Shown here: positions 12,324 through 64,000 of the stretch, in pieces | How the letters are laid out: each line of letters starts with the position of its first letter | How positions within the stretch are numbered: the stretch's first letter is position 1 | NCBI GenBank assembly: GCA_033398695.1 | Contig: JAWKAU010000035.1 | Coordinates: 434,001 to 498,000, forward strand | DNA length: 64,000 bases | Direction: 5' to 3' | Source: Orobanche coerulescens | Lineage: Eukaryota > Streptophyta > Magnoliopsida > Lamiales > Orobanchaceae | Notes under the pieces: generated by a model | The model's database searches: none | The model's input: the letters and a program-made list of their open reading frames with translations, nothing else | What the model was told of the DNA's origin: nothing | Made by a program: the position numbers and the translations under genes

Positions 12324-12480
12324 TAGTGCACGCTACTCTTTCTCCCTTGCATGCGCTACCGATGTGCGGTTAGCGTACGCTAACACGTTACTGTTAGCGT
12401 GCGCTAACGATTGTTATTTAGCTACTGGACTGTTTTAAGTCCCGTTAGCGCGCGCTACTTGTGTGAGTTAGCGTGCGCTA
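12324..12480 (+). promoter_or_regulatory. Palindrome array in LTR of element B
   Basis: Six copies of a 12-bp palindrome TAGCGYRCGCTA (some decayed) start at 12324, 12347, 12371, 12395, 12446 and 12469. The pitch is 23-24 bp, with one skipped position. The 3' LTR has the same array at 19307-19463 with fewer CpG losses. The TATA box lies 12 bp downstream. Confidence 0.8.
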
Positions 12481-13453: not shown

Positions 13454-13837
13454 GTATCGATCGTGGAGACAAACGAGCACTTGAGCCGTATGAGGATGAT
13501 GGGCAAGCATGATACTGTTCAGTAGACATTTGTTGGTGTTTAGTTCTGTCACTTATTTTTTTTTGATGTTTTTTTTTGGGGTTTCTGTATTATAAAACTG
13601 GTTTAAGTACTCGAGTACTTTCTTTTTAAAATTGTTAATGTTGTGCTCCCGTTTTGGGAAATGGATTGATGTTGGATTCTATTTGTCGGGTTGTAGTCTT
13701 TTATTTGAATTGTCGTTTTATTGATGATTGTTTGTCGTTGGCGAATGTCTTGTTGGTACGTTAGCCTGGTGAATTCCACAGTATGGGGTCCACGGCGCTG
13801 TAATATGCCCTGAATGTCTTGGGGGTGTTACAGAATA

Positions 13838-14055: not shown

Positions 14056-17000
14056 ATTCCTGCTGGTAGAGGACGTGGACGCGGTCGCGGACGCGGTAGG
14101 GGACGTGGCGCAGCCGGTGGGGCGGCCATGTTCGATCACTCGGGAACTGATTCGGCGATGCCTTCTTTGTCGAACAGTGTTCCCCTTAGTTCCGGAGGTC
14201 AGCAGGACCAGTCTGCTAGCTCCGGTAATGCACACGAGAATGTTGGAGTGGCCAACATTTTGCAACAAGTAGCGAACCAGATGACGCTACTGACTCAGGC
14301 CGTTCTATTCGGCTAAGCTAATGCCAACCCGGTTCCGCTTACTGGATCCGGCAATGATAAGTTACTTCAGGACGTGATTCGTATGCGTCCTCCGCAGTTT
14401 GATGGTGCTTCCGACCCCGCTGGTTGGGAGAATTGGCTATTCGAGATGGAGAAAGTATTTGAGGCTCCTAATTGTTCTGAGGAGAGGAAAGTACCCATTG
14501 CTCAGTACTTCCTCACCAAGGAGGCAGCAACGTGGTGGCAAGCGGTGAGACCGCGCGACCGGGCAGCTACGTGGGCAGAGTTTCGGGATCTGATGGAAGA
14601 TGAATTCTGTCCATGGCCAGTGAAAGAGGGGAGGATCCGAGCCTTCTTTGAGGCTAAGCCCCAAGATGTTCCTATTTCTCAAGCTATCAAATACTACAAT
14701 CAACAGATGCATTATGTGAGAAACCAAGTCCGAGATGAGCTTGATAAGATCCGCCACTTTGATATGCGGATGAAACCGAGGGTGCGCCACTACATGGCTG
14801 GTCTGGGGTGCACGACTTTGAAAGAGTATCAGAATAAAGCGATGTCTTACGAGATGTCGTCATGGCGCAGAGACGGCACTGAAGGAAAGAAGCGAAGACC
14901 TCCGGCCACGGGAGGCAAGTCAGGAGGGTATCCGAAGGCTCAGTCTGGTTCGCGAGTCTTCGGGAGTCAGTCACCATCAGTTGGTCGAGTAAACGGTTCT
15001 AGGTCTGCTCCTGCTGGTTCCGTTCGTGGTCCTACGTGCTTCAACTGTAGTCGACCGGGCCACATGATGAGTGAGTGTGATAGGCCTCCGATTCAGTGTC
15101 TTGCTTGTGGTCGGATGGGTCATCGTGCTAAGTTTTGTATGGATACAGCTCGGGCTCCAGTTACTCAGATATCATCCCCAGGTGCGGGAGAGCCGAGTGT
15201 GAATAAGGCACCGACAGTTCCTCAACCGCAGCAGAGTTTTGGTAGAGGTCGAGGACGTGGGCAGCCTTCTAGAGGGGGAGCTTCTAGTGAGGGGTCTGTT
15301 CTGCCCCGAGTGTACAAGATGAGACGAGCAGGAGATCCTGACGCGACGGTGGCTACAGGTACCGTCCACATCCTTGATCATCCTGTTTCTGTATTGTTCG
15401 ATTCTGGTGCTACGCATTCTTTTATATCTATGGATTGTGTGCGTCGTCTGCATGTTGATTGCCTAGTTGCTTGTGAGCCTTTTGTTGTTAAACTTCCTAG
15501 TGGGGATAGCATCGTGGGGAATCGTGAGGTTAGAGATTTTCCAGTGAGTATCGCGGGGAGGGTTTGGCCTTCTAATCTGATCGCAGTAGATATTATAGAT
15601 GAAGATTTGATTCTTGGTGAGGATTGGCTGGACCGTCATGGGACGATCATGAATTATAGAACAAGGACTGTTTCGATGGTAGCCTCTGATGGTACTGAGC
15701 ATTCTTTCGTGGGGCATAAGCGGAGTAGCCAAAGACTCTTGATTAGCGCCTTGAGGGCGGTGAGGCTTCTTCGGGGAGGTTGCACGGGTTATTGGTGTTA
15801 CGCTTTGAGATCGGAAGAAGGGGGAGTCGAACTCTCGTCTATTCCGGCAGTGTGTGAGTATCCTGATGTCTTTCCAAACGAGTTGCCGGGTTTGCCGCCG
15901 GACCGAGAAGTTGAGTTTACCGTCGATTTAGAGCCGGGTGCAGCACCAATCTCTAAGACGCCATACCGTATGGTGCCCGCCGAGATGCTGGAGCTGAAGA
16001 AATAGTTGGGAGAGTTGCTAGACATGGGATATATTCGACCGAGCGCTTCGCCTTGGGGCGTACCGGTCCTATTTGTAAAGAAGAAGGATGGGTCACTTCG
16101 TCTGTGTATCGACTACCGAGAGTTGAACAAAGTGACCATCAAAAACAAGTATCCGCTCCCGAGGATTGATGACTTGTTTGATCAGTTGCAAGGGGCAACT
16201 GTGTTTTCGAAGATTGATTTGAGATCAGGGTATTATCAGCTCCGAGTGAAAGATACCGATATTCCGAAGACGGCCTTTCGGACGAGATACGGTCACTACG
16301 AGTTTGTGGTTATGCCTTTTGGGCTAACCAACGCCCCAGTCGTGTTCATGCAGCTTATGAACAAAGTCTTTATCGAATACCTCGATAAGTGCGTAGTCGT
16401 TTTTATCGACAACATCCTGATTTACTCGAGGAGCGAGGAAGAGCACGCCCGTCCTTTGCATATCGTGTTAGATATTTTGAGAACTCGGCATCTTTTTGCG
16501 AAGTTCTCAAAGTGTGAGTTTTGGTTACGGGAGGTTATGTTTCTCGGTCATGTAATCTCGGCCGAGGGTGTTCGTGTGGACCCACATAAGGTAGAGGCAG
16601 TGTTGGATTGGGCGCCGCCCAAGAACGTGAAGGAGGTCCGCAGTTTTCTGGGATTGGCCGGGTATTACCGTAGATTCGTCGAGGGGTTCTCTAAGCTCGC
16701 TCGACCGTTGACTTAGTTGTTACAGAAGTCAGACAAGTTTGTGTGGACCGACGAGAGGCAGAATAGTTTCGAGGAGTTGAAGAAGCGATTGACGACCGCT
16801 CCTGTTTTGGCCTTACCAAGTGGTAATGAGGGTTTCTCAGTTTTTAGTGATGTTTCGGGCCAAGGGCTCGGATGTGTACTTATGCAGCACGGGAGGACGA
16901 TTGCCTATGCTTCCCGTCAGTTGAAACCATATGAATTGAACTACCCTACGCACGATCTTGAGTTGGCCGCAGTCGTATTTGCATTGAAGATCTGGCGTCA

Positions 17001-18741
17001 TTACTTGTATGGATCGTCGTGTCAGATTTTCACCGATCACAACAGCCTAAGGTACATATTCACCCAGAAAGAGCTTAATATGAGACAGAGGAGATGGTTG
17101 GAGTTGATTAAGGATTACGATCTCGAGATCCTTTATTATCCGGGCAAGGCTAATGTGGTAGCAGATGCCTTGAGCCAAAAATCGGTATCTCTTCGGGCGC
17201 TTGAGTTACTCACGGCCCAGTCGGGACTTCAACGAGAGTTTATGAAGTTGAGCATTGAGGTTGTGCTGCCAGAGAGTTCCGGGCAGTTGCGTACTCTTGA
17301 GATTTCTTCATCTATGGTCAATGACATTAAATCGGGACAGTTGGAGGACCCGATGTTTATTCAGATTCGAGAGAGTGTAGGGAAGGGGAAAGCCCCGAGA
17401 TTCGTTATTCATGAGGACGGAGTGTTGAGATTCCGAGGTCGGTTGTGTGTTCCGAACGACTCGGAATTGAGACAGAATATTATGCGAGAGGCTCATGCGT
17501 CACCTTACTCAGTCCATCCAGGCTCGAGTAAAATGTATAAAGATTTAAGAAAGAATTTATGGTGGAACGACATGAAGAAGGAGGTAGTTCAGTTTGTGGC
17601 TAAGTGTTTGACTTGTCAGCAAGTCAAGATTGAGCATCAGCGGCCAGCCGGGTTGTTGAAACCACTTCCCATCCCGGAGTGGAAGTGGGAGGATATCTCT
17701 ATGGATTTTGTCACGGGTTTGCCGAGGACGAAGACTGGTATGAATATGGTGTGGGTGATTGTAGACCGACTGACTAAGTCGGCGCATTTTCTGGGCATCA
17801 AGGACACTTGGGGTCCAGAAAAGTTGGCTCGTATTTTTATCGCTCAGATAGTGAGACTTCATGGTACACCGAGGACCATTATTTCAGACAGAGATGGCCG
17901 ATTTGTATCGCATTTTTGGCAAGCGGTACATAAGGCATTGGGGACACAGTTATGTTTGAGCACTTCATTCCATCCCCAGACCGATGGTCAGTCCAAACGT
18001 ACCATTCAGACGTTCGAGGATTTGTTGCGCGCGTGTGCGTTAGATTGGAGTAGTGACTGGGAGGAACATCTGGCTTTGATTGAGTTTACTTATAATAATA
18101 GCTGGCACGCGTCGATTAAGATGGCACCATATGAGGCATTTTATGGCCGATGTTGCCGATCACCGATATGTTGGGATGAGCCGTCCGATTTGGTTGGCAC
18201 CGAGCCGGACCTTGTGTTGGAGACGAGGGAGAAAGTTGAATTGATTAGAAAGTGAATGTTGGCTGCTCAGAGTCAACAAAAGTCTTATGCGGATGTTAGG
18301 CGTCGACCCTTGGAGTTTGAGGTGGGAGATCATGTTCTGTTGAGAGTGTCTCCGACGAAGGGAGTTTTCCGTTTTGGGAACAAGGGAAAACTCAGCCCGA
18401 GATATATTGGACCTTTCGAGATATTGGAGAAAGTGGGCGAGTTAGCGTACCGTTTGGCTTTGCCTCCGTCGTTGAGTCATGTGCATAGCGTATTTCACAT
18501 TTTCCAGTTGAGGAAGTACGTTCCGGACCCGTCCCACATTGATTTTGGAGACGTGGAGATCGAGAAAGATGTTACGTTTGAGGAGAGGCCCGTCAGAATT
18601 TTAGAGCGTCGAGACAAGCAGTTAAGGCACAAAACCATTCCTTTGGTTAAGGTGCAATGGTCGAGGCACGGAGTAGAAGAAGCGACGTGGGAGTTAGAGG
18701 AGGATATGCGTTCGAGGCATCCCGAACTTTTTGATTCTTAA
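14056..18741 (+). pseudogene. gag-pol: Element B gag-pol polyprotein, one frame with four stops
   Basis: A single frame runs from 14056 to 18741 with no frameshift and four stops: TAA 14314-14316, TAG 16003-16005, TAG 16714-16716 and TGA 18253-18255. In order: an RG-rich N-terminus; gag; two CCHC knuckles (CFNCSRPGHMMSEC, CLACGRMGHRAKFC, about 15037-15140); protease with [12 protein letters not shown] (about 15393); RT; RNase H (VFSDVS, FTDHNS); integrase with an HHCC domain (about 17510-17640) and core; and a C-terminal chromodomain (about 18540-18740). RT motif 5 reads FIDN (16402-16413) instead of FIDD. The integrase third acidic residue is Lys (QSKRTIQ, codon 17995-17997). The chromodomain would direct integration to heterochromatin. 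The expected ATG before the RG region is absent (ATT at 14056). Confidence 0.9.
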
Positions 18742-18776: not shown

Positions 18777-20804
18777 TGTAATATCCGTAACTTTCCATTT
18801 TTAGCAGTTTCCATTTTTGGTGTATGGCTATTTTTATCGACTCGCTTATAACCGTTTCGACATTTTGAATCTACTTTGTTCTTGGAGTTTTTCCATTTGG
18901 ACGAGTTTTGATGATGTTTTCACGTAATTTCATTTTATGACATGTTTTGCCATATGAACGTTCGATTCTCCTAAAACTCGTTCGTTTTCGTTGTTTCTTG
19001 GTTTGTACAAGTTAGTATGGTTGAGTTGGTCATGTGGAGATTTTCATTTTGTAAATCCGACGTCGTTTCGTGATTTTCGGGCACTTGGGCCATTTTTGTG
19101 ATTTCTTAATAGTTTAGGGAATCTCATTTTCGTTGTCGTACTACGGACCCTCCAGTGGTCGGAATTGTGTTTTCTTTCAGCGCTTAACTCCGTTGTATTG
19201 TATATTTCGTGTTCGTGTTTCTGGATTCTGGCATTGTCGTGCGTTTTGAGTTTCGTACCTTCGACAGCAGCATTCTGGGCTGGGCAGTGCTGAACTACTG
19301 TATTGATAGCGCACGCTACTCTTTCTCCCTTGCGTGCGCTAACGATGTGCGGTTAGCGTACGCTAACACGTTACTGTTAGCGTGCGCTAACGATTGTTAT
19401 TTCGCTACTGGACTGTTTTAAGTCCCGTTAGCGCGCGCTACTTGTGTCAGTTAGCGTGCGCTAACTATGCAATTTATATAAGTCAAGGCAAGATGCAAAG
19501 CAGTTTTATTCTTTTCTCTTCGTTTTCTTCGACGTGCGACTTCAGAGGCGATTTCCACCGGTACTGTCCAGAGTTCTCTTCAAATTCCATCACCGTAGAG
19601 TCGTGTTAGCATATTATCATTAGCATAATCATCCTCCATCGTCCGAATTCAAGGTATCTTCATCTAGAACCCTAACTTGTCAATTTTGGGGGGTTTTCGG
19701 GATTCTAGGGATTAATTCCGAATTGTTCAATTATGTTACGTAATTTCTTACCGGTTGTTGTTATTGAGTGATTCTCAATCCGTTTTCCTCGAATTAATCC
19801 GTGAATTGTTGATACGGGGAGATTTTGCGTAAACCCTCGCCCGTATCGATTGATCGTTTTTGTCATGAATTGTAATCGGGGATTATGGGTGTATTCCGAA
19901 TGGTTATTGTTGTCCGTTGGGACTGAACTATGTTGATCCTTCGTTTAGGAACCGTCGTTTTCCACCCGGACCGTTCGTAGTCGTGTTTCACTTCCGTTTC
20001 TTCAAGAATGTCTCAAAGGCAAGTACTTTACATTTGTTTACATGTTCTAGTATTTGAATTATGGTTGTGTTGTGGTTGTTGTGGATGGATATGTGTATGT
20101 TCACCTAGGGACGGTCCGACGGGGCCTCTAGGGATACGTATTGCCGTGAGTGTGCGTATCGCGAACTATGGTTAGCCACCCAGGGATGTCCGACGGGGCT
20201 CTGCGGGGTACGGAGGACGTGAGTCTCGTACCGACGGTTAACTTTGAATTGTGATTTGTTGGAGATAATGTGTTTTGTGATTGTACATTGTAAATATTCT
20301 GGAATATAAAATGATTTTGGCGCATATATTCATCTGATTAGAATGTAGTTCAAATGGATTGTACTTGCACTAGCTGTTGTCGCTAACCCCTTAAATGGGG
20401 GAAATACTTTTTGTATTTCAGGTATCGATCGTGGGGACAAACGAGCACTTGAGCCGTATGAGGATGATGGGTAAGCATGATACTGTTCAGTAGACATTTG
20501 TTGGTGTTTAGTTCTGTCACTTATTTTTCTTTTTTTGATGTTTTTTTTTGGGGTTTCTGTATTATAAAACTGGTTTAAGTACTCGAGTACTTTCTTTTCA
20601 AAATTGTTAATGTTGTGTTCCCGTTTTGAGAAATGGATTGATGTTGGATTCTATTTGTCGGGTTGTAGTCTTTTATTTGAATTGTCATTTTATTGATGAT
20701 TGTTTGTCGTTGGCGAATGTCTTGTTGGTACGTTAGCCTGGTGAATTCCACAGTGTGGGGTCCACGGCGCTGCAATATGCCCTGAATGTCTTAGGGGTGT
20801 TACA
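18777..20804 (+). repeat. 3' LTR of element B
   Basis: 2028 bp copy of the 5' LTR; palindromes at 19307-19463, TATA near 19475, leader hairpin near 20387-20400. Followed by the AATAG duplication. Confidence 0.92.
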
Positions 20805-25611: not shown

Positions 25612-25897
25612 TGTAACAACCCGATTTTTCTAAGGTATTTTATGAATATATTTTTTTTATAATAAGGAAAATTGTAGAAATTTCAAGTCGTTACGAAACA
25701 TACATTTTCTAAAGTATTTTGAGGAATTTAAAATGATTTCAAATCTCCAATACAACCCTAAAATCCAGCAGCGGAAAATAATTGTCAAAAACAAGGTTAA
25801 TTGTTTCATATTAACTTGAACGGAATTTAAAATAAATACGTAACATTAAATATATTTATCATATGTCAGTCTCCTCTGCAATCCGTTCTCTTCATTG
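25612..25897. other. CACTA interior, no gene seen
   Basis: AT-rich. It begins TGTAACAACCCG, which resembles an LTR start, but no matching end or duplication was found. Confidence 0.4.
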
Positions 25898-25905
25898 CGA
25901 ATTAC

Positions 25906-26126
25906 TAGGGGTGGACACGAACCGAATGAACCGAACTTTTGGTGTTATTGACCATTCGTTCATTTGGTTCGTGTAGTGTTCGGTTCGTGTTCGTGTTCGA
26001 CGAACATTACAAATTAGTGTTCGAGTTCGGTTCGACATATTTTTTATTGTTCGTGTTCGGTTCGTTTGTGTTCAATTGTTCTGTTCGTTCGTTTGGTTCG
26101 TTTGTGTTCAATTGTTTCTGTTCGTG

Positions 26127-26190
<64 letters not shown>

Positions 26191-26363
26191 TCGCGAACAG
26201 TTCGCGAACACCCGATCAAAATATAAAATGTTCGCGATTCGGTTCGAAAATACTCGAACATGTTCGCGAACATGTTTGGTTCGGTCAAACCAAACTCGAA
26301 CTGACCGTTGATCGAGCTTTTTCACGAACAGTTCGCGAACGTTCGGTTCATGGGCCACCCCTA
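25906..26363. mobile_element. hAT-type MITE 1
   Basis: 458 bp bounded by TAGGGGTGG...CCACCCCTA with an 8-bp duplication CGAATTAC on both sides (25898-25905 and 26364-26371), which is the hAT signature. The interior is rich in TTCGCGAAC palindromes and contains an (AT)n(GT)n microsatellite at about 26129-26191. It has no coding capacity. Confidence 0.88.
26129..26191. repeat. (AT)n(GT)n microsatellite
   Basis: Uninterrupted AT then GT dinucleotides inside MITE 1. It produces spurious Tyr-Ile and Cys-Val repeat ORFs. Confidence 0.95.
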
Positions 26364-26371
26364 CGAATTAC

Positions 26372-26724
26372 GAAGGTAAAATTTGACTGGGGTGAAACTG
26401 AAAGAATTAGAAACTTAGGGACTAAAATTAAAATATAGGTAAAATGATGGGATAATAAGTCCTTATCACGATGAGAAGTCAGTTCCTCATCTCAATCTCT
26501 CTCATAAGTCGTATGACTCTCTCTCTAGCAGGGAATCCCCTTTCCTCTTCTCTTGTGGAAACTTTCTCTGGTGATTAGCAGGACCGAGATATGGAGCAAC
26601 AGTGTCGATGGTGTCATCGCTCAGAGCAGCAACTGTACGCTCACCATGAATCATCCGGGTCGGGCTTTCACTAGTTTCAGATTCGAACTTCCGATGGAAA
26701 GGTAAAGGAGTCGGGCTTCGAGAT
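26372..26724 (+). other. CACTA interior, leader-like sequence before the solo LTR
   Basis: CT-rich tracts (CTCTCTCTCTAGCAGGG near 26520) and a short ATG-started stretch from 26592 that hits a stop. Joined across the solo LTR it runs into the exon-like sequence at 29942. It may be the 5' end of a captured gene, but I cannot identify it. Confidence 0.35.
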
Positions 26725-27226
26725 TATAATACCTGTATTTTTCATTCTAGTATTTTTTGATTCTAGCAACTCGTTTGTGTTCATTGACACATTTTGGACA
26801 TGTTTTGTTCTGCACTTATTGTTATTAGAGCGAGTTTTGATATTGTTTCGGGTTAATCGGCATATCATTGCGACTTTTTCACATTTAGGTCCGATCCTTG
26901 TGAATCTTGCTCGGAATTGTCATTTTGTCGTTCCCACAAGTTCGTTTAACATTTGTGGTCGTGTTGTGAACTTTGGAATTGTTATTCGATCTCTTATCGT
27001 GATTTTCGAATTGTTGGTCCGTTTCGTAATTTCCTAAAGTTTTGGGTACTCATTTTCATACCCATTTTACTTACCTTCTATCGTTGGAATCGCATGTTCG
27101 ATCAACGCTTTTGTTCATTGTGGAGAATCCTTTGTGAGCATTTTGTTGAATTTTTTGAATCATCGCATTTCGGGGTCGTTCGGGGTTGGTCGGGCAGCAA
27201 AATGGAATCTGCTGCCAGAATGCAAG

Positions 27227-27813
27227 TTACGGCCGTAACCTGCAATATGTTACGGCCGTAAGGTTGTGGGTGTTACGGCCATAATGGCTTATTGGTAACC
27301 GTCAGGGGTGGACACGAACCGAACGAACCGAACTTTTGGTGTTATTGACCGTTCGTTCGTTCGGTTCGTGAAGTGTTCGGTTCGTATTCGTGTTCGACGA
27401 ACATTACAAATTAGTGTTCGAGTTCGGTTCGACATATTTTTTATTGTTCATGTTCGGTTCGTTTGTGTTCAATTATTCTGTTCGTACGCTTTGTTTGTTT
27501 GTGTTCAAATATTTCTGTTCGTGCCATATTATTTATATATATATATATATATATATATTAATGTTCGCGAACACCCGATCAAAATATAAAATGTTCGATG
27601 TTCAGTTCGAAAATACTCGAACATGTTCGCGAACATGTTCGGTTCGGTTAAACCGAACTCGAACTGACCGTTGACCGAACTTTTTCACGAACAGTTCGCG
27701 AACGTTCGGTTCATGGGCCATCCTTAATAACGGCCGTAACACACCCTCACATTTTGGGCATAATACCCGTGAGCTGGGTTACGGCCGTAATATCCTATGT
27801 GTTACGGCCGTAA
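27227..27813 (+). promoter_or_regulatory. Palindrome array in the solo LTR, split by a MITE
   Basis: TTACGGCCGTAA or close variants start at 27227, 27250, 27273 and 27296 (the last cut by MITE 2), then at 27779 and 27802. Within each block the pitch is exactly 23 bp. Confidence 0.8.
27303..27727. mobile_element. hAT-type MITE 2
   Basis: About 425 bp with CAGGGGTGG and a mutated right end (CCATCCTTA). The 8-bp flanks correspond to TAACGGCC (left copy mutated), so it landed inside one of the LTR palindromes. Closely related to MITE 1, including an AT microsatellite near 27533-27558. Confidence 0.8.
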
Positions 27814-28005
27814 CACGCCCAGCTATTTAATAGCTGTGCGACGGGTTTCACTTCATTTCTCCCTTTTCTCCTTCTCTTCTCGTGGTCGGCAGACAGGTGA
27901 AGATAGGGTTTGGATTCTTAGTCGACTCTACTCAATTCTAATGTGTTTTGGAGGGTCTTAGGTGATTGTAACATCATCTAATCGGTTGTTCTTCGTCGGA
28001 TCGAG

Positions 28006-29591
28006 GTATTTTCTTGTTTTTCCCTAGAGTTGACCTTTTTAGGGATTTTGTTCTTGATCTCATTTCTAATCCAGTTTTTATGAATTGATCATTGTTAAAC
28101 ATTTTTATTGATCACGTTCTATGGATTGTATATCCATATTCCATCTTCGTGTAATTTGAATCGTGATTCATTGACCTATTGAAGTCTTGAGCATTTAATG
28201 CTCGATTAAATGTCTCAATGAGTTTTCCTTCGATTCTTAGATGCGTTTTCCATTGTTTTAAATTATTATGCTCGTAGTGATCACGTTGCTATTGTGTCTC
28301 TCATGGAGGATATAAGTTTGGGGACTTTCGGTCGAGCTATGTTCTTCGGAGTTGTTCGTGTGATAACCATCGAAGCAAGTATTCTTGTCTATACGATTTA
28401 TATTGTGTAAATTGAGGTTGTATATGAAATTATGTTGGTTATTCATTATTGTGATTTTGTATCATATGAGTCGTTGTAGATGTTATGTTGAGTTAGAATC
28501 GGCTTGTTGCTTGTCATAGAGATATGTCAATAGAGACGTAGTGTCGGGTAGATAGTACACTTAGACATGTGCTATAATGTTTTGGTGGTCACCGGGTTGT
28601 GTGGGTTAAGTTGTGTGTTATGAGTTGGGTTAGTCGTAATGGTTTGAGATGCGTTTAGAATTGTTAGGTTGTAGTATAGCTAGGTCAGTCGTAGTTATGA
28701 GTCGGATAAATGGCCATTTTTAGCAAGTGCCTTGATTATATATATTGTGACTAACAATCAAGACATGCAGTTTTGTAATGTGTGTTGTTGTTCTTCTACC
28801 CGGGGACTGTCCGACGGGGCCTCTGGGGCCCGATACTAATGGGTACGGCCGTGGAAGTGGTTTCCCACCCAGGGACGGTTCGATGGGGCCTCTGGGGGTC
28901 GATACTAATGGGTACGGCCACGAGTTACCAAGTGTGGTTTTCGTGATGTTGATGTTGACGTTTTCAGTAATTGTGATATGTCCGGAATATCACAACGTTT
29001 ATCCTCGATGTTGAGATATATTATATATAGGGTTTAGGTACTTGGCTAGAATGGCACTAGGATATGTGTCGTAAGTGTTTAGCTCATTGATTGTGAGGTT
29101 TTGGTGTTGGAAAACGAACCTTAATATTGTTTTCGTGTACTGTGGTTTGATGAGATTTTGGGTTGAGATCCCAACGGTTGTGTAAAGGTTGTTTTGTGGA
29201 AAATGACTTTGGGTCGAGACCCATTTGTCTTGAGATGGTTTGCAACTAAGGACTCGAGGTCCATAAAGATTTTCTATTTATAAAAATGTTGTTACATGAA
29301 CGAGATTTGGGCCGAGATTCTGTTATTTTAGAAAAAAGGTTTTATAATATTGAACTCGAAGTACCAAAAGACTTTCTGTTGTTTTCTAAAACTTCCGAGT
29401 TTATATATATTATTTTCAAAGACTTGAGTTGTACCTTAAATATTGAAAACCTCTCGGGAACTTCTTTCACGACTGTTGTTATTTTAATATAATTGATATT
29501 GGCGTGATATATTTTGTATAGACTGAATACTTGTACTAACCATTCAAATGCTAACCCCTTAAATGGGGGAAATGCGTATCATGCATTTCAG
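28006..29591 (+). other. Putative leader intron in the solo LTR
   Basis: Donor TCGAG|GTATTTTC at 28006. A CTAAC branch-like site lies at 29551 and the acceptor TTTCAG|GTGTG ends at 29591. It aligns in position with the B and C introns. Confidence 0.4.
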
Positions 29592-29941
29592 GTGTGCCTA
29601 GTTCGTTGGAGCAACCACAGGGACGGCATGGAAGAAGACGAGGCGTGATACTATTCAAGAGTTAAGAGTCCAGTTTGATGTTGTTTTATTGTTGAGTTAT
29701 CTTCAGTCTTCCGCTATATTGTATTTTGACCACTATGTGGGTATGTACAATAATGAGTTTATTTCTGGGTTGATTTAATTCAATGTAATTAATATTCGAC
29801 CTTATCGGTCTATGTCAGTAAGTTGTTTGACCTCGGTCGGTCAAACATTGTTCATATCGTGGTTGTTAGCCTGGTAGATCCTTATAGAAAAAGGGTCTAC
29901 GGCGTGTAATATTCCCAGTTGTTTCTAGGGGTGTTACAGAG

Positions 29942-30720: not shown

Positions 30721-30965
30721 AGGTAACTTTTACAAAGAAATATTTTGTTGCGTGTCAATTCTCTTTTTTTTTATGTAAATGGCCTACTCTGTTACACACA
30801 CACACACACACACTGTAATACCCGGGATTTTTGTTATGTAATTCGAACTCGTGATATTGTAATGATTGTACTTTTGTCTGAGTACTATTCTCCGTATTTC
30901 ATAATCCGATGTTGTCGAGCGTATAATTTTGTGTATGTGATTTGAAGATTGTAATTCTGCGCATG

Positions 30966-31260
30966 TAGCGCACGCTATCGGCTATGTGTAGCGTGCGCTA
31001 ACATGGATTCATAGCGCACGCTACAGAGGATCATTAGCGCACGCTATGCGTGGTCAAATTGATTGAGACGTGCGGTAGGTGAGATCTGGCCGGGGGACCC
31101 CTATCGGATCGTGTCGGATGAACCTGGACGGCTTTCGGGAAAAGCCAAGTCAACGCCTTAGCGCACGCTACAGGTATATGCATAGCGCACGCTAAGTGCT
31201 GAATACAGTTAAGTCAATGAGCCGTTAGCGCACGCTACGAGCAGGGTCTAGCGCGCGCTA
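30966..31260 (+). promoter_or_regulatory. Palindrome array 1 in LTR of element C
   Basis: TAGCGCACGCTA-type 12-mers start at 30966, 30989, 31012, 31035, 31159, 31183, 31226 and 31249. Consecutive members are 23 (once 24) bp apart. A TATA box follows 13 bp after the last. Confidence 0.85.
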
Positions 31261-31272
31261 ATAGCCATTTAT

Positions 31273-31282
31273 TATAAATAGG
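31273..31282 (+). promoter_or_regulatory. TATA box of element C LTR
   Basis: TATAAATAGG follows the palindrome array; repeated in the 3' LTR near 38490. Confidence 0.65.
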
Positions 31283-31947
31283 ACAGCATCCTATTCGTGA
31301 TTTCAGTTCTTTCTCCTCCCATATCCCGAACTCTTACTCTTAGAACATAACTTCCTTCATCCTAAACACTCCATATCATCATCCTAGCTCGTGATTGAAG
31401 ATCGTATGTCATTGGAGTTTGGTGTTCAAGCCTTCGGAGTTGGATTGCTTCAATTTCCTCCGTGTTCTTCACTACCTTGAGGTAGGTGATTCTTCACCGA
31501 TGTTAGTAATGTTTTTTAGGACGTTTGATCATGTTTTGATAGCAAGTTATTTCGTTTATAATCGGTCATCACATGTTAGAAGGATACTTTTGACGTATCG
31601 GCACTATATATCGTATGAACCTTTGAACCATCTTATTATAAGGACTCCTAAGCATGTTCAAATCGATTTATGATCGATGTCGGATATTTACCCGGTTGCT
31701 ACGTTTTACACGTTGGAATCATGTGTTTTGAAACGTAGACGACGGAACTTAGAATATTTCTTGAAGATCTAAGAGGAATTATGATGTTGAGATGGTTATC
31801 CGTATATTTGTACCTCATGATCATGGAATTTCCACAAACCTTATTAGCATGTTATGATCGAGGATGACTTGTATTATCACGGTAGAATTCATGAGTTCTT
31901 CACTATTCAACCCAGTTTTCGGTTTGCAGTATTCTGCCATGCAAGAT

Positions 31948-32139
31948 TAGCGCACGCTAACATATGTGAGTTAACGTGCGCTATCGGGGTTCAGTTAACG
32001 TACAATACGTACGTAGCGTATGTTATGTATCAGCCGATTCAAACTGTCAGACCGTGGCTAGCGCACGCTAGTCTTATACGATAGCGTACGCTAACAGGCA
32101 GGCTTAGCGCACGTTACGTAGAGTACGTAGCGCGCGCTA
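31948..32139 (+). promoter_or_regulatory. Palindrome array 2 in LTR of element C
   Basis: Clear members start at 31948, 31972, 32059, 32082, 32105 and 32128 (pitch 23-24), with decayed members in between. They lie downstream of the TATA box, inside the putative leader intron. Confidence 0.75.
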
Positions 32140-32499
32140 AGCAGTCCGGGCAGATTGTTTATTTTGAGCTTTTCGGCCGTAGACCGAATTGTTAGGCCAT
32201 CGTTCGACTTGAGATGATTTGTATATCGTTCCTTTTGTTAAGGTTCAAGCTTGTTACGTTGATCGAAGGAGGCGGCCTTCGAGTGTGTCGAGATCATTGA
32301 AGTGCTTCGTCCTTGCCATTTTCGAGGCAAGTATCATATGTCGAGTTTGATTTATCATGCTTGTGGTTTTGTTCATATTGTTGAATATGAGATGTATTTC
32401 TGGAAATTCTCGTGATATTCGTTGTTATTGGTTCGTATTGATGAACATATTGAAATGCATATGTGTATGCATAGTTGATTGATTTATGGTATAAATGAT

Positions 32500-32675
32500 C
32501 CGGGGGGATCATGAGGATCTATGCTGAGGGCGCTGGATCGAATGTCCACCATGCGTTGGTCCGACGGGATCATCATGGGGATCTATGCTGAGGGCGCTGG
32601 ATCGTTGGACGGGTTTTCCACCATGCGTTGGTCCGACGGGATCATCATGGGGATCTATGCTGAGGGCGCTGGATC
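32500..32675 (+). repeat. Tandem units in LTR of element C
   Basis: About two and a half copies of a unit containing CATGCGTTGGTCCGACGGG and ATCTATGCTGAGGGCGCTGG. The same block recurs at 39725-39900 and inverted at 62455-62615. Confidence 0.85.
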
Positions 32676-33163
32676 GCTGGATTACCTTGCATTGTGTTGA
32701 TGGAATCGTGAGTATTTGCATCGTTGGATTCCGGTGGAGGAAGTCCGTTTTGCATGTTTTATGATGCATTGATGATTTATTGTATGATGATACTTGTACT
32801 AGCATTGTTTTGCTAACCCCTTCGGGGGTGGACATTGTTTTGATGTTCAGGTAGCCGAGGAGCGGGGAGGCAACCACAGTACCGACAGGACGATGAAATG
32901 GCTCAGTGATGTGATTGATGTTATTGTTATTGAGAGTTGTCTTCGTGTTTCGTTTAGTACTCGAGTACGTCTGTTTTAATAATGTCTTTTCGATATGGTT
33001 GTATAAGTTAACTCTTTTGATCGGTTGAATCAAATTTGTCTTTGAACTTCAGTTGTACGATTGGTTTATGTTTACACTCTTTTTAAAATTAGCCTTGTAA
33101 ATCCTTACCTAAAGGGTTTACGGCGCTGTAATTATTCCGAATATCTTGGGGTGTTACAGAATA

Positions 33164-38030: not shown

Positions 38031-40373
38031 TGTAATACCCGGGATTTTTGTTATGTAATTGGAACTCGTGATATTGTAATGATTATACTTTTGTCTGAGT
38101 ACTATTCTCCGTATTTCATAATCCGATGTTGTCGAGCGTATAATTTTGTGTATGTGATTTGAAGATTGTAATTCTGCGCATATAGCGCACGCTATCGGCT
38201 ATGTGTAGCGTGCGCTAACATGGATTCATAGCGCACGCTACAGAGGATCATTAGCGCACGCTATGCGTGGTCAAATTGATTGAGACGTGCGGAAGGTGAG
38301 ATCTGGCTGGGGGACCCCTGTCGGATCGTGTCGGATGACCCTGGACGGCTTTCGGGAAAAGCCAAGTCAACGCCTTAGCGCACGCTACAGGTATATGCGT
38401 AGCGCACGCTAAGTGCTGAATACAGTTAAGTCAATGAGCCGTTAGCGCACGCTACGAGCAGGGTCTAGCGCGCGCTAATAGCCATTTATTATAAATAGGA
38501 CAGCATCCTATTCGTGATTTCAGTTCTTTCTCCTCCCATATCCCGAACTCTTACTCTTAGAACATAACTTCCTTCATCCTAAACACTCCATATCATCATT
38601 CTAGCTCGTGATTGAAGATCGTATGTCATTGGAGTTTGGTGTTCAAGCCTTCGGAGTTGGATTGCTTCAATTTCCTCCGTGTTCTTCACTACCTTGAGGT
38701 AGGTGATTCTTCACCGATGTTAGTAATGTTTTTAAGGACGTTTGATCATGTTTTGATAGCAAGTTATTTCGTTTATAATCGGTCATCACATGTTAGAAGG
38801 ATACTTTTGACGTATCGGCACTATATATCGTATGAACCTTTGAACCATCTTATTATAAGGACTCCTAAGCATGTTCAAATCGATTTATGATCAGTAATCG
38901 GATATTTACCCAGTTGCTACGTTTTACACGTTGGAATCATGTGTTTTGAAACGTAGGACGAACGGAACTTAGAATATTTCTTGAAGATCTAAGAGGAATT
39001 ATGATGTTGAGATGGTTATCCGTATATTTGTACCTCATGATCATGGAATTTCCACAAACCTTATTAGCATGTTATGATCGAGGATGACTTGTATTATCAC
39101 GGTAGAATTCATGAGTTCTTCACAATTCAACCCAGTTTTCGGTTTGCAGTATTCTGCCATGCAAGATTAGCGCACGCTAACATATGTGAGTTAACGTGCG
39201 CTATCGGGGTTCAGTTAACGTACAATACGTACGTAGCGTACGTTATGTATCAGCCGATTCAAACTGTCAGACCGTGGCTAGCGCACGCTAGTCTTATACG
39301 ATAGCGTACGCTAACAGGCAGGCTTAGCGCACGTTACGTAGAGTACGTAGCGCGCGCTAAGCAGTCCGGGCAGATTGTTTATTTTGAGCTTTTCGGCCGT
39401 AGACCGAATTGTTAGGCCATCGTTCGACTTGAGATGATTTGTATATCGTTCCTTTTTTTAAGGTTCGAGCTTGTTACGTTGATCGAAGGAGGCGGCCTTC
39501 GAGTGTGTCGAGATCATTGAAGTGCTTCGTCCTTGCCATTTTCGAGGCAAGTATCATATGTCGAGTTTGATTTATCATGCTTGTGGTTTTGTTCATATTG
39601 TTGAATATGAGATGTATTTCTGGAAATTCTCGTGATATTCGTTGTTATTGGTTCGTATTGATGAACATATTGAAATGCATATGTGTATGCATAGTTGATT
39701 GATTTATGGTATAAATGATCCGAGGGGATCATGAGGATCTATGCTGAGGGCGCTGGATCGAATGTCCACCATGCGTTGGTCCGACGGGATCATCATGGGG
39801 ATCTATCTTTGAGGGCCTGGATCGTTGGACGGGTTTTCCACCATGCGTTGGTCCGACGGGATCATCATGGGGATCTATCTTTGAGAAGCTGGATCATTTG
39901 GATTACCTTGCATTGTGTTGATGGAATCGTGATGATTCGCATCGTTGGATTCCGGTGGAGGAAGTCCGTTTTGCATGTTTTATGATGCATTGATGATTTA
40001 TTGTATGATGATACTTGTACTAGCATTGTTTTGCTAACCCCTTTGGGGGTGGACATTGTTTTGATGTTCAGGTAGCCGAGGAGCGGGGAGCAACCACAGT
40101 ACCGACAGGACGATGAAATGGCTCAGTGATGTGATTGATGTTATTGTTATTGAGAGTTGTCTTCGTGTTTCGTTTAGTACTCGAGTACGTCTGTTTTAAT
40201 AATATCTTTTCGATATGGTTGTATAAGTTAACTCTTTTGATCGGTTGAATCAAATTTGTCATTGAACTTCAGTTGTACGATTGGTTTATGTTTACACTCT
40301 TTTTAAAATTAGCCTTGTAAATCCTTACCTAAAGGGTTTACGGCGCTGTAATTATTCCGAATATCTCGGGGTT

Positions 40374-40463: not shown

Positions 40464-41982
40464 TAGGGGTGGCCCATGAACCGAACGTTCGCGAACTGTT
40501 CGTGAAAAAGCTCGGTCAACAATCAGTTCGAGTTCGGTTTGACCGAACCAAACATGTTCGCGAACATGTTCGAGTATTTTCGAACCGAACATCGAACATT
40601 TTATATTTTGATCGGGTGTTCGCGAACTGTTTGCGAACATTAATATATATATATATATATATAAATAATGTGGCACGAACAGAAACATTTGAACACAAAC
40701 GAACAAAGCGTACGAATCGAATAATTGAACACAAACGAACCGAACGTGAACAATAAAAAAATATGTCGAACCGAACTCGAACACTAATTTATAATGTTCG
40801 TCGAACACGAACACGAACCGAACACTTCACGAACCGAACGAACGAACGGTCAATAACACCAAAAGTTCGGTTCATTCGGTTCGTGTCCACCCCTGGCCGT
40901 TACCAATAAGCCATTACGACCGTAACACCCACAACCGTACGGCCGTAACATATTGCGATTCTGCCGTAACTTGCATTCAGCGGCAAATGATTCAATTTCT
41001 TTGCCGGCCATTCCGAACGACCCCGAAATGCGATGATTCAGAAAATTCAACGAAACGCTCACAAAGGATTCTCCACAATGAACAAAAGCGTTGATCGAAC
41101 ATGCGATTCCAACGATAGAAGGTAAGTAAAACGGGTATGAAAATGAGTACCCAAAACTTTAGGAAATTACGAAACGGACCAACAATCCGAAAATCACGAT
41201 AAGAGATCGAATAACAATTCCGAAGTTCACAACACGACCACAAATGTTAAACGAACTTGTGGGAACGACAAAATGATAATTCCGAGCAAGATTCACAAGG
41301 ATCGGACCCAAATGTGAAAAAGTCGCAATGATATGCCGATTAACCCGAAACAATATCAAAACTCGCTCTAATAACAATAAGTGCAGAACAAAACATGTCC
41401 AAAATGTGTCAATGAACACAAACAAGTTGCTAGAATCGAAAAATACTAGAATGAAAAATACAGGTATTATAATCTCGAAGCCCGACTCCTTTACCTTTCC
41501 ATCGAAAGTCCGAATCTGAAACTAGTGAAAGCCCGACCCGGATGACTCATGGTGAGCGTACAGTTGCTGCTCTGAGCGATGACACCATCGACACTGTTGC
41601 TCCGTATCTCGGTCCTGCTAATCACCAGAGAAAGTTTCCACAAGAGAAGAGGAAAGGGGATTCCCTGCTAGAGAGAGAGTCATACGACTTCTGAGAGAGA
41701 TTGAGATGAGGAACTGACTTCTCATCGTGATAAGGACTTATTATCCCATCATTTTACCTATATTTTAATTTTAGTCCCTAAGTTTCTAATTCTTTCAGTT
41801 TCACCCCAGTCAAATTTTACCTTTGTAATTCGTAGGGGTGGCCCATGAACCGAACGTTCGCGAACTGTTTGTGAAAAAGCTCGATCAATGGTCAGTTCGA
41901 GTTTGGTTTGACCGAACCGAACATGTTCGAGTATTTTCGAACCGAACATCGAATATTTTATATTTTGATCGGGTGTTCGCGA

Positions 41983-42030
<48 letters not shown>

Positions 42031-42280
42031 GACACGAACAGAAACAATTGAACACAAACGAACCGAACGAACGAACAGAACAATTGAACACAAACGAACA
42101 AAGCGTACGAACAGAACAATTGAACACAAACGAACCGAACACGAACAATAAAAAATATGTCGAACCGAACTCGAACACTAATTTGTAATGTTCGTCGAAC
42201 ACGAACACGAATTGAACACTACACGAACCGAACGAACGAACGGTCAATAACACCAAAAGTTCGGTTCGTGTCCACCCCTA
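40464..42280. mobile_element. Composite hAT insertion: two MITEs bracketing solo-LTR sequence
   Basis: The unit is bounded by TAGGGGTGG (40464) and CCACCCCTA (42280) and flanked by an 8-bp duplication GTCCTGGG (40456-40463 and 42281-42288). Inside are MITE 2' (40464-40895), 937 bp equal to the inverted 26364-27302 segment (CACTA interior plus the first part of the solo LTR), and MITE 1' (41833-42280). The inner flank of MITE 1' keeps GTAATTCG, half of its old duplication. The outer flanks are new. So the whole block moved as one. Confidence 0.88.
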
Positions 42281-42451
42281 GTCCTGGGTTAAAGCTTATA
42301 TGCTGATTTTATTTTTTTACTTTTCTGAACTTTGATTAGTGCTAGAAGCTGTGTTGTATGAACTTTGCGGGCAGGATGATTGGGATTGGGGTTGGTTTTG
42401 TTGTGAATTTGATTTTGTTGCTGACATTTTATGTTTAATTTATTTGCTCAG

Positions 42452-45641: not shown

Positions 45642-45716
<75 letters not shown>
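45642..45716. repeat. (AT)n(GA)n microsatellite
   Basis: TATATA then GAGAGA runs; the paralogous site at about 53905 has only a short GA run. Confidence 0.95.
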
Positions 45717-45720
<4 letters not shown>

Positions 45721-46344
45721 AAATATATTTGTAGAGAACAAATCACTTTGAGAGGGTACATGGTTGAAAGAAAAAAAACTAGGGTATAGAATTTGAAGGT
45801 TAATAATGATTTATATTTTTTATTTTATTATAATATAAAAGATTTGGGATGGAAAAATGAAAAAGAATTATAAATGAATTAAAATAATTTATTGAATAGT
45901 AAAAAACTCTCAATAATATATATCGAATATCAGAAAGTCTATAAGGCTGGAAATTCAGCTTTTGTTATGTACATTATTCCGAGACACAAATATGACGTCG
46001 GAAAATATGGACACTAGAATAACTAAATACTAATCTAAAAATCGTAGAATTGTCTTCGCGGTGATGATCTTTCTCATTTGTTTAACCAAAAAGACCATGA
46101 ACTATCCAATAACAAAATATTCCCAATATTATCTCAGACTACTTTGCATGATAGTTTCATAAATACAAACCATTATTTTTATAAAAAGTATATGTTATTT
46201 CTACAGTATATTGGAAAATAGTTTTTTATACACGATATATATGGTTTTATTAAAAAAATTCTTTATTTATCCATGCAAAGAATCTCCAACACTCTCTTAC
46301 TTTTACTTTTGATATCGCTACGTGAAGTTGACCGCTAATGAATA

Positions 46345-46632
46345 CTCCATCCCTCCCATAAAAGCGTGCTTATTCTTTATGGGCACGAATTTTAATAAAA
46401 ATTAGGTATTGATGGATTTGAGTGGAGAAATGATCCCAACTTTTGTATGTGTATATTAATTATTGTTGTTAATTAATTGAAAAATAAAGAGTATGTGTCA
46501 TCCTTGGTATTGTTGTAAATAAGTTGAAAAATTGAGAAAGTATAAGGGATATTTTCAAAAATTGGAATGAGCACACTCGTGTGGGTCGTACAAAAACGAC
46601 AAATTGAGTACACTCTTATGGTACGGAGAAAG
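46345..46632. mobile_element. Stowaway-type MITE (copy 1)
   Basis: CTCCATCCCTCCC at the left and a mutated GGAGAAAG end at the right, flanked by TA. The better-kept copy at 54556-54846 shows canonical CTCCCTCCGT ends. Confidence 0.75.
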
Positions 46633-46703
46633 TATAAATTTCCAAATATATAATCCAACACTCAGTAGCTTCTAATTTCGACTCTTATTATCATTATTTC
46701 AAA

Positions 46704-61971: not shown

Positions 61972-64000
61972 TGTAACACCCCGAGATATTCGGAATACTT
62001 ACAGCGCCGTAAACCCTTTAGATAAGGATTTACAAGGCTAATTTTAGGAGAAGTGTAAAAACAATACAATCGAACAACTGAATTTCAAATACAGATTTGA
62101 TTCAACCGATCAAATAAGTTAACTTATACAACCATATCGAATTGACTTCATTAAAGCAGACGTACTCGAGTACTAAACGAACCAAGAAGACCAATCACAA
62201 TAACAATAACATCAATCACATCACTGAGCCATTCCATCGTCCTGTCGGTACTGTGTTTGCCTCCCCGCTCCTCGGCTACCTGAACATCAAAACAATGTCC
62301 ACCCCCGAAGGGGTTAGCAAAACAATGCTAGTACAAGTATCATCATACAATAAATCATCAAAGCATCATAAAGCATGCAAAACGGACTTCCGCCACCGGA
62401 ATCCAACGATGCGAATCCTCACGATTCCATCAACACAATACAAGGTAATCCAGCGATCCAGCGCCCTCAGCATAGATCCCCATGATGATCCCGTCGGACC
62501 AACGCATGGTGGAAAACCCGTCCAACGATCCAGCGCCCTCAGCATAGATCCCCATGATGATCCCGTCGGACCAACGCATGGTGGACGTTCGATCCAGCGC
62601 CCTCAGCATAGATCCTCATGACCCCCTCGGATCATTTATACCATAACCAATCAATTATGCATACACATATGCATTTCAATATGTTCATCAATACGAACAA
62701 ACAACAACGAATATCACGAGAATTTTCAGAAATACATCTCATATTCAACAATATGAATAAAACCACAAGCATGATAAATCGAACTCGACATATGATACTT
62801 GCCTCAAAAAAATGGCAAGGACGAAACACTTCAATGATCTCAACACACTCGAAGGCCGCCTCCTTCGATCAACGTAACAAGCTCGAACCTTAACAAAAGG
62901 AATGATATACAAATCATCTCAAGTCGAACGATGGCCTAACAATTCGGTCTACGGCCGAAAAGCTCAAAATAAACAATCTGCCTGGACTGCTTAGCGTGCG
63001 CTACGTACTCTACGTAACGTGCGCTAAGCAGGCCGGTTAGCGTACGCTATCGTGTAAGACTAGCGTGCGCTAGTTACGAACTGACAGTTTGAACCGGCCG
63101 ATACATAACGTACGCTACGTACGTTTTGTACGTTAACTGAACCCCGATGGCGCACGTTAACTCACATATGTTAGCGTGCGCTAACGTTGCATGGCAGAAT
63201 ACTGCTAACGGAGAAACTGGGTTGAAAGGTGGTGAATTCATGAATTCTATGTTGATACAACAAGTCATCCTCAAGCATGTCATGCTAAAAAAAAGGTTTG
63301 TGGAAGTTCCATGATCATGAGGTACAACTTATACGGATAATCATCTCAACAACATATCTTTTCTAAGATCTTCACGAAATATACCAAGTTCCGATTATTT
63401 CAAGTCCCAAAACATATGATTCCTTATGTAAAACATACGAACTAGGAAATCTCCGATTACTGATCATAAATCGATTTGAAAACGCTTAGGAGTCCACAAA
63501 CTGAGATGGTTCAAAGGTTCATACGATCAATAGTGCCGATACGTCAAAAGTATACTTATAACATGTGATGACCGATCATAAACGAAATAACTGGCTAACA
63601 AAACATGATCAGACGTCCTTAAAAACATTACTAACATCGGTGAAGAATCACCTACCTCAAAGTAGTGAAGAACACGGAGGAGAATGAAGCAATCCAACAC
63701 CGAAAGCTTGAACACCAATCTCCAATGATATACGATCTTCAATCACGAACTAGGATGTTGATATGAAGTGTTTGGGGTGAAGGAAGTTATGTTCTAAGTG
63801 TAGGAATTCGAGTAATGAGAGTAGAAATCACGAATAGGATGCTGTCCTATTTATAATAAATGGCTATTAGCGCGCGCTAGACCCTGTTCGTAGCGTGCGC
63901 TAACGGCTCACAGTCTAAACTGTACTCGGCACTTAGCGTGCGCTACGCATATACCTGTAGCGTGCGCTAAGGCGTTGACTCGGCTTTTCCCGAAAGCCGT
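61972..64000 (-). repeat. LTR of the element C family (E), minus strand, runs off the window
   Basis: Reverse complement of the element C LTR from its TGTTACA end. It includes the hairpin, tandem units (62455-62615) and palindromes at 62992, 63015, 63038 and 63061 and at 63868 and 63891. About 310 bp of the LTR start should lie beyond 64000. Whether it is solo or part of a full element cannot be told. Confidence 0.9.

What the first reader, a model, noticed from the sequence alone, without database searches (positions are those of the whole stretch)
30966..31260. 23-bp-phased arrays of 12-bp CG palindromes upstream of LTR promoters
In LTR C the palindrome TAGCGCACGCTA recurs at 30966, 30989, 31012, 31035, then 31159/31183 and 31226/31249, ending 13 bp before a TATA box. 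A second array (31948, 31972, 32059, 32082, 32105, 32128) lies downstream. LTR E repeats it (62992, 63015, 63038, 63061). LTR B has six members at 23-24 bp pitch. The solo LTR uses a different palindrome, TTACGGCCGTAA, at the same 23-bp pitch (27227, 27250, 27273, 27296; 27779, 27802). Conserved pitch with changed sequence suggests a dimeric DNA-binding factor stacked every two helical turns, possibly co-evolving with each family, or a methylation-sensitive enhancer. I know of no described system of this kind in Tekay elements.
Basis: partly seen in the sequence, partly recalled or inferred. Interest (0 to 1): 0.92.

Follow-up and report, generated by a model that had tools for sequence, protein, structure and literature searches.

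The report
Phased palindrome arrays in retrotransposon promoters
The promoters of several plant jumping genes in this window carry rows of a short mirror-symmetric DNA word at a strict 23-24 base pitch, most likely docking sites for paired proteins that switch the element on; similar rows are known in a different group of plant jumping genes, but this element type and this strict spacing look new.

Summary
The 12-bp unit TAGCGYRCGCTA recurs at 23-24 bp in five LTRs of two Ty3/gypsy families (B, C/E). A third LTR, related by its ends, carries TTACGGCCGTAA at the same pitch. A common form, TWRCGNNCGYWA, occurs 55 times against 0.7 expected, always in these LTRs or a moved piece of one. Spacers in C are random-like; in B and solo a weak similarity remains next to the units. 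Between two C-family copies, units differ at 2 of 120 sites, spacers at 11 of 99. B and 'solo' place six units at nearly the same offsets from the TATA box (-23...-168; -22...-165), although word and spacers differ. So it is not a plain tandem repeat. Best reading: an upstream promoter array in which each palindrome binds a symmetric dimer of a host factor, neighbours packing 23-24 bp apart. Closest known: palindromic repeated-motif boxes upstream of the TATA box in Sirevirus (Ty1/copia) LTRs. These elements are Ty3/gypsy with Del/Tekay traits, hence a new variant of a known kind. Binding factor, methylation and genome-wide generality are untested.

The parts
30814..33158 (+). 5' LTR of element C (2,345 bp; TGTAATACCC...GGGGTGTTACA)
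   Evidence: 98.1% identical to 38031-40372; ends
30966..31046 (.). C, U3 distal array: 4 units at 30966, 30989 (reversed), 31012, 31035; pitch 23, 23, 23
31159..31194 (.). C, U3 middle pair: 31159 and 31183, pitch 24
31226..31260 (.). C, U3 proximal pair: 31226 and 31249, pitch 23; 12 bases before TATAAAT
31273..31279 (+). TATAAAT, presumed TATA box of element C
   Evidence: sequence; function inferred from position
31948..32139 (.). C, downstream array in the presumed transcribed part of the LTR: 31948, 31972, decayed units near 31996 and 32014, then 32059, 32082, 32105, 32128
38183..38477 (.). same U3 units in the 3' LTR of element C
39168..39359 (.). same downstream array in the 3' LTR of element C
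62992..63183 (-). LTR E (C family, minus strand, cut by the window end): downstream array
63868..63969 (-). LTR E: U3 units 63868, 63891, 63934, 63958
12324..12480 (.). element B 5' LTR array: 12324, 12347, 12371, 12395, 12446, 12469 (the first two with 1 and 2 mismatches)
19307..19463 (.). element B 3' LTR array: 19307, 19330, 19354, 19378, 19429, 19452; TATATAAG at 19475
27227..27303 (.). 'solo' LTR (about 25612-29938): units 27227, 27250, 27273 and the broken unit at 27296
27304..27735 (.). hAT-like MITE plus one 8-bp target duplicate, inserted in the 4th unit
   Evidence: hAT-like from the 8-bp duplicates, family not searched
27728..27813 (.). 'solo' LTR: units 27728 (the split unit, right-hand side), 27779, 27802; TATTTAAT at 27824
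14317..18741 (+). element B gag-pol frame: gag, zinc knuckle, protease, RT, RNase H, integrase, chromodomain-like match; three in-frame stops inside it (16003, 16714, 18253), end stop at 18739

Best explanation
The arrays are an upstream promoter/enhancer module of Del/Tekay-type LTRs. Shown: 12-bp dyads with two CpGs at fixed places (one lost in 1 of 26 units), mostly in groups of two or four at 23-24 bp pitch, the nearest starting 22-24 bp before a TATA box in each of the three families, with spacers unalike in C and nearly so in B and solo, and, between two C-family copies, fewer changes in the units than around them. Inferred: each dyad is bound on both half-sites (TWRCG) by a symmetric dimer of a host DNA-binding protein; neighbouring dimers touch, which fixes the pitch; the array recruits the transcription machinery to the TATA box. 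Related elements can carry another half-site in all their units (TAGCGY or TTACGG), as expected if a different paralogue or an altered factor is used. The CpGs could make binding methylation-sensitive (speculative). The factor is probably not encoded by the element.
For: Pitch and chance levels. Confined to these LTRs and a moved piece of one. Spacers random-like in C. With units masked, the promoter regions do not align clearly: the best pair between families (B and the flank upstream of the solo array) had 7 of 200 shuffles as good, the next (C U3 and solo downstream) 21 of 200. Same offsets from TATA in B and solo, with in-register spacer identity 25 of 93, null 27.5. C versus E: units 2/120 changed, spacers 11/99, rest 134/1799; Fisher p 0.004 against spacers, 0.010 against all else; sliding the mask gives 50 of 2,017 shifts as low, or 58 of 2,017 with the two decayed units included (3/144). 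Mixed orientation and a free centre fit a dimer reading two outer half-sites. Element B has a 484-bp leader and 35 bp after gag-pol; among ORFs of 150 aa or more only one antisense ORF (15463-15927, 154 aa) lies inside it besides gag-pol. Two other LTR-like repeat pairs in the window (45702-46703, 55905-57841) show no phased palindromes.
Against: No binding, expression or methylation data. The conservation test rests on one pair of copies and is modest (p about 0.004-0.03); unit CpGs kept in 21 of 22 against 74 of 85 elsewhere is not significant. After insertion nothing protects units in B (2/72 against 57/1951), and in the solo LTR against its moved copy the units differ more than the LTR at large (4/34 plus 2 gapped; spacers 3/33; rest 30/869); in element C it is 0/168 against 48/2176, p 0.046. 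Decay in dead copies was expected but is not support. A weak similarity of the 11 bases before the units in B (0.376, null 0.274, p 0.006) and solo (0.355, null 0.260, p 0.019) could be a trace of duplication; without the two touching bases p is 0.051 and 0.126. Arrays are not consistently richer in CpG than their own LTRs. No plant factor was matched: NAC cores in 1 of 26 units. The downstream array lies in presumed transcribed DNA, which a promoter model does not require.
Confidence: 0.6

Rival explanations
1. The palindromes act in RNA: transcribed arrays fold into stable hairpins that feed small-RNA production (the model proposed for Sirevirus palindromes) or serve RNA dimerisation/packaging.
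For: The six most stable 110-nt windows of the C LTR lie on the arrays (-53 to -48 kcal/mol; median of all windows -26), and six array stretches fold better than dinucleotide shuffles (z -3.5 to -9.2). In maize, an excess of small RNAs maps to clusters of palindromes in Sirevirus LTRs (passages of PMC10760457). The downstream array is in the presumed leader.
Against: Stability follows from any palindrome row; it does not need a 23-24 bp pitch, a set distance to TATA or identical units. Small-RNA targeting would be a cost to the element, not a reason to keep the units.
Confidence: 0.13
2. Anti-silencing or boundary array: a factor bound at the CpG-bearing units keeps the LTR promoter free of methylation, as VANC proteins do at tandem motifs in VANDAL elements.
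For: Two or three CpGs per unit in most units; VANC targets are short motifs accumulated in non-coding tandem repeats that vary between related elements (passages of PMC5735166).
Against: CpG observed/expected is 1.2-1.9 in the arrays against 1.33-1.36 for the B, C and solo LTRs, so arrays do not stand out consistently. Element B has no further gene beside gag-pol, so no VANC-like protein of its own. The VANC motifs in the passages seen are not palindromic. Methylation is unknown here.
Confidence: 0.13
3. An ordinary short tandem repeat: one 23-bp unit was duplicated and then decayed, without function.
For: Pitch is constant and units within one LTR are alike; duplication may be how the array arose. 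A weak similarity of the bases before the units remains in B (p 0.006) and solo (p 0.019), mostly in the two touching bases.
Against: No spacer similarity in C, units in both orientations, B and C share the unit without clearly alignable flanks, and functionless decay would not spare units between C and E.
Confidence: 0.07
4. Chance or an assembly artefact.
For: None found.
Against: Simulation and shuffle controls; copies at several places in the window and in two diverged families.
Confidence: 0.01

Closest known systems
Repeated-motif (RM) boxes of Sirevirus LTRs (Ty1/copia; Bousios et al. 2010, PMC2829016: abstract, sections 9 and 19, passages seen)
   Same: Short palindromes with family-specific sequence, repeated in the LTR, forming CpG islands, upstream of a conserved TATA box, in otherwise diverged LTRs; binding factor unknown there too.
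   Different: Those are copia elements, and the paper calls the boxes absent from its classic retrotransposons; of its 13 motifs all but Tnd-1 carry a CGG-CCG core, which here only the solo palindrome has; at least eight copies per element, LTR and linker together; in the text I saw no fixed pitch is given; further boxes lie before an env gene.
[quoted passage not shown] 2016, Genome Res 26:226; not held; seen only as cited in PMC10760457)
   Same: Clusters of palindromes in LTRs with strong predicted secondary structure.
   Different: Copia, other motif (CACCGGACNNNGTCCGGTG); linked to small RNAs, untested here. In the citing survey Ty3 elements of maize generally lacked an obvious peak of such structure.
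Plastic CpG islands in Del/Tekay LTRs (Cruz et al. 2014, PMC4029996: abstract, section 14, passages seen)
   Same: Same element lineage by structural traits; [quoted passage not shown]
   Different: No palindromes described ('palindrom' has 0 occurrences in the text held); CpG islands were found in most grass groups and not in the eudicot group studied.
VANC targets in VANDAL elements (PMC5735166: abstract and passages seen)
   Same: Short motif multiplied in non-coding parts of a mobile element and changed between relatives.
   Different: DNA transposons that encode their own motif-binding protein; the motifs shown are not palindromic.
EBNA1 sites at the Epstein-Barr virus Qp promoter (PMC2921154: passages seen)
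   Same: The site segment printed in its methods contains the very 12-mer TAGCGTGCGCTA, and a second site-like stretch starts 24 bases on (counted by eye; that it is an EBNA1 site is recalled): a physical precedent for dimers on such palindromes at this pitch.
   Different: A protein of an animal virus; no homology is claimed and the shared 12-mer is most likely coincidence.

Membership tests
Del/Tekay chromovirus (Ty3/gypsy) | gag-pol with RT, RNase H, integrase and a C-terminal chromodomain | tested here: inconclusive
   Element B: gag, zinc knuckle, protease, RT, RNase H and integrase zinc domain above cut-off; integrase core (20.2 against 32.6 bits) and chromodomain (E 4e-5, 23.9 against 25.1 bits) below their cut-offs. 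Of element C two ORFs were scanned; no chromodomain among them.
Del/Tekay chromovirus (Ty3/gypsy) | U5 attachment site with GGG at positions -10 to -8 (type A) and long LTR (about 1.1-4.8 kb) | tested here: met
   GGG in 5 of 6 LTR ends (B 5', B 3', C 5', solo, E); the sixth, C 3', ends GGGGTTACA and runs into ACACAC, two bases short of the others. LTRs B 5', B 3' and C 5' are 2,039, 2,028 and 2,345 bp. Criteria from PMC4029996.
Del/Tekay chromovirus (Ty3/gypsy) | RT phylogeny within the Tekay clade | not tested
   No labelled Tekay reference set was at hand; among the 120 hits listed of 8,000 scored, those with names are nearly all plant proteins, several of Tanacetum coccineum at 60-62% identity.
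Sirevirus RM boxes | palindromic motif clustered upstream of a TATA box | tested here: met
Sirevirus RM boxes | CGG-CCG core | tested here: not met
   absent from the B and C units; present in the solo unit TTACGGCCGTAA
Sirevirus RM boxes | eight or more copies per element (3' LTR and linker) | tested here: inconclusive
   14 clear units in the C LTR; 6 each in the B and solo LTRs
Sirevirus RM boxes | carried by a Ty1/copia Sirevirus | tested here: not met
   Ty3/gypsy order RT, RNase H, integrase and a chromodomain-like end in element B
VANC-type anti-silencing system | element encodes a dedicated motif-binding protein | tested here: not met
   Element B: gag-pol frame, 484-bp leader, 35 bp before the 3' LTR, one antisense ORF of 154 aa inside gag-pol; ORFs under 150 aa were not listed
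VANC-type anti-silencing system | loss of methylation at targets | not testable with these tools
   no methylation data
NAC transcription-factor sites | core T[G/A]CGT or TTNCGT[G/A] (PMC4081100, passages) | tested here: not met
   1 of 26 units

The most novel reading that the evidence does not exclude
Del/Tekay retrotransposons of this plant lineage carry a promoter built on a fixed geometric frame (units about 22, 46, 96, 120, 143 and 166 bp upstream of TATA) in which the protein-binding word, but not its placement, is exchanged between families: all units change both half-sites together. That would be a co-evolving, swappable dimer-array system in Ty3/gypsy elements, with cooperative stacking of dimers at 23-24 bp as the conserved property.
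Probability: 0.35. Interest if true: 0.75.

Novelty: new variant of a known kind. Interest (0 to 1): 0.55.

Why it matters
It would show that two separate lineages of plant LTR retrotransposons, copia Sireviruses and gypsy Del/Tekay, arrived at the same promoter design of repeated CpG palindromes before the TATA box. The strict pitch gives a handle: it predicts a dimeric factor with side-by-side contacts, which can be fished out directly. Different words on a kept frame would make co-evolution between elements and host transcription factors testable.

Tried and rejected
Simple tandem repeat: rejected for C by unalike spacers and mixed orientation; less cleanly for B and solo. In-place sequence homology between the promoters of B, C and solo: not clearly detected with units masked (best 7 of 200, next 21 of 200). 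NAC factors, a lead from memory: rejected by consensus. BZR, FHY3/FAR1, LBD and MYB sites came to mind from memory and were not tested. More relatives: IMG/VR scans with the B-element RT region (8 pattern matches, none confirmed) and with an alignment of 13 RNase H-integrase proteins (19 pattern matches, none confirmed); a scan for paired TTACGGCCGTAA found none. The single hits of the paired TAGCG pattern lie in a GC-rich IMG/VR contig and in Aurantiacibacter; no link to plant elements was seen. Strings of the unit in print (32 papers, 20 listed, titles only except one): none of the 20 titles concerns retrotransposons; three are EBV papers.

Literature searches behind 'not described for Tekay/Del': 78 papers, 20 listed; 6; 8; 95, 25 listed; 222, 20 listed; 2; 2; open-licence PMC papers only. 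Passages only were also seen of PMC11656987, PMC6911290, PMC3485330 and PMC4844398; none of those passages describes phased palindromes.

Full report
What is there. The window is plant DNA with several LTR retrotransposons. Element B has LTRs at 11794-13832 and 18777-20804 (96% identical; 5-bp target duplication AATAG). Element C has LTRs at 30814-33158 and 38031-40372 (98.1%). LTR E, about 91% like C, lies on the minus strand and is cut by the window end. A further LTR ('solo', about 25612-29938) has ends like those of the others, but I saw no matching target duplication, so it may be a recombinant. Element B encodes gag, zinc knuckle, protease, RT, RNase H, integrase and a chromodomain-like end; the integrase core and chromodomain matches are under their curated cut-offs, and the frame is broken by three stops. 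Five of six LTR ends carry the GGG of the type A Del attachment site (criterion from PMC4029996); the C 3' LTR end is two bases shorter. Named hits among the 120 proteins listed are nearly all from plants, several from Tanacetum coccineum at 60-62%, so a eudicot host is likely and the species unknown.

The arrays. Units in C, B and E follow TAGCGYRCGCTA; the centre is CA, TG, CG or TA, and units stand in both orientations. Across C, B and solo, counting one LTR per family and the MITE-split unit once, 17 of 23 neighbour intervals are 23 (13) or 24 (4) bp; the rest are 43, 51, 51, 87, 124 and 699 (the two decayed C units near 31996 and 32014 were left out). A search that assumed neither word nor pitch found alike palindromic 12-mers only at lags 23, 24, 43, 45-47 and 51 of 14-60; 20 simulated windows gave 1 pair in all. 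The form TWRCGNNCGYWA, derived from the units, fits 25 of 26 and occurs 55 times in the window against 0.69 expected: 54 in these LTRs, 1 in a moved piece of the solo LTR, 0 elsewhere.

Not a plain tandem repeat. Within C (14 units), units are 0.909 alike and the following 11-nt spacers 0.258 (null 0.253, p 0.34); in B (6 units) 0.883 and 0.309 (p 0.08); in solo (5 of its 6 units) 0.967 and 0.300 (p 0.15). The 11 bases before the units are random-like in C (p 0.36) but weakly alike in B (0.376, null 0.274, p 0.006) and solo (0.355, null 0.260, p 0.019); most of this sits in the two bases touching the unit, and without them p is 0.051 and 0.126. That could be a longer site in these families or a trace of duplication. 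With units masked, the promoter regions of B, C (both arrays) and solo show no clear similarity. Between C and E, units differ at 2 of 120 sites, spacers at 11 of 99, the rest at 134 of 1799. Sliding the same mask along the LTR gives 50 of 2,017 positions as low; with two decayed units added it is 3 of 144 and 58 of 2,017. One of the two changes is at the centre and keeps the pyrimidine-purine step. This supports selection on the units but rests on one pair of copies. Post-insertion comparisons show no protection in B (2/72 against 57/1951) or in the solo LTR against its moved copy (4/34 against 30/869; spacers 3/33); C shows 0/168 against 48/2176, p 0.046.

Shared geometry, different word. 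Counted from the TATA box to the unit start, B has units at -168, -145, -121, -97, -46, -23; solo, with the MITE span left out, at -165, -142, -119, -96, -45, -22; C at -307, -284, -261, -238, -114, -90, -47, -24. B and solo thus agree within 3 bp for six units, while their spacers in register are 25 of 93 identical, no more than shuffled (null 27.5). The words differ at half-site positions 2, 3 and 6, mirrored in both arms, but T1, C4, G5, C8, A12 are common to all 26 units and G9 to 25. A single B unit shows T2 and a single C unit A3, so the two words are variants of one frame. This is the most striking result. Either the promoters are homologous and the word was exchanged in all units, or the geometry was reached twice; both need a constraint on placement.

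How it most likely works. A 12-bp dyad with informative outer positions and a freer centre is what a symmetric protein dimer reads. Constant 23-24 bp distance with nearly free spacer sequence points to contact between neighbouring dimers; at 10.5 bp per turn this is 2.2-2.3 turns, so successive dimers would wind around the helix instead of lining one face. The last dimer just before TATA suggests activation of the core promoter. The binding factor is probably a host protein, because element B shows no further gene. All steps beyond the sequence facts are inference.

The RNA rival has some support: the six most stable 110-nt windows of the C LTR lie on the arrays, and palindrome clusters in maize Sireviruses collect small RNAs (PMC10760457). 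But any row of palindromes folds well, and this does not explain pitch or offset. An anti-silencing role like that of VANC remains open without methylation data; the arrays are not consistently richer in CpG than their LTRs.

Compared with what is known. Sirevirus LTRs carry repeated palindromic boxes upstream of the TATA box (PMC2829016). The design is alike; the element superfamily, the core word in B and C, and the phasing differ. Del/Tekay LTRs are known for variable CpG islands in most grass groups and none in the eudicots examined (PMC4029996). I found no description of phased palindromes in Del/Tekay LTRs in the searches listed, which cover open-licence papers and capped listings. The host genome could not be searched, so how general the array is within the genome is open. 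Verdict: real, probably functional, a new variant of a known kind.

Noticed in passing
25904-27726 and 40464-42282 (minus): Two hAT-like MITEs and the piece of LTR between them (with three palindromes and part of a fourth) appear to have moved as one composite element: the copy at 40464-42282 is 92% alike and flanked by an 8-bp duplication CCCAGGAC.
   Followed up: partly
27296-27735: A MITE sits inside the fourth palindrome of the solo LTR, with its 8-bp target duplicates within the palindrome.
   Followed up: yes
32508-32681, 39728-39885, 62449-62621: 72-bp tandem repeats in the 3' half of the C-family LTR; 72 is a multiple of three, and an antisense open frame runs across them in two of the copies (179 aa at 32509-33048, 167 aa at 62118-62621).
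   Followed up: no
57488-57841 and 61239-61728: 68-bp tandem repeats with different copy number (5.2 and 7.2) in the two copies of a 1.9-kb repeat pair (55905-57841 / 59656-61592); no phased palindromes there.
   Followed up: no
L001:12696-12730: A GC-rich IMG/VR contig carries TAGCGTGCGCTA and TAGCGCACGCTA 23 bp apart, facing each other, perhaps a repressor operator; its genes were not examined.
   Followed up: no
window, LTR regions: CpG observed/expected is 1.06 in the whole window and 1.33-1.36 in the B, C and solo LTRs, which seems high for plant repeats that are normally methylated (the expectation is from memory).
   Followed up: no
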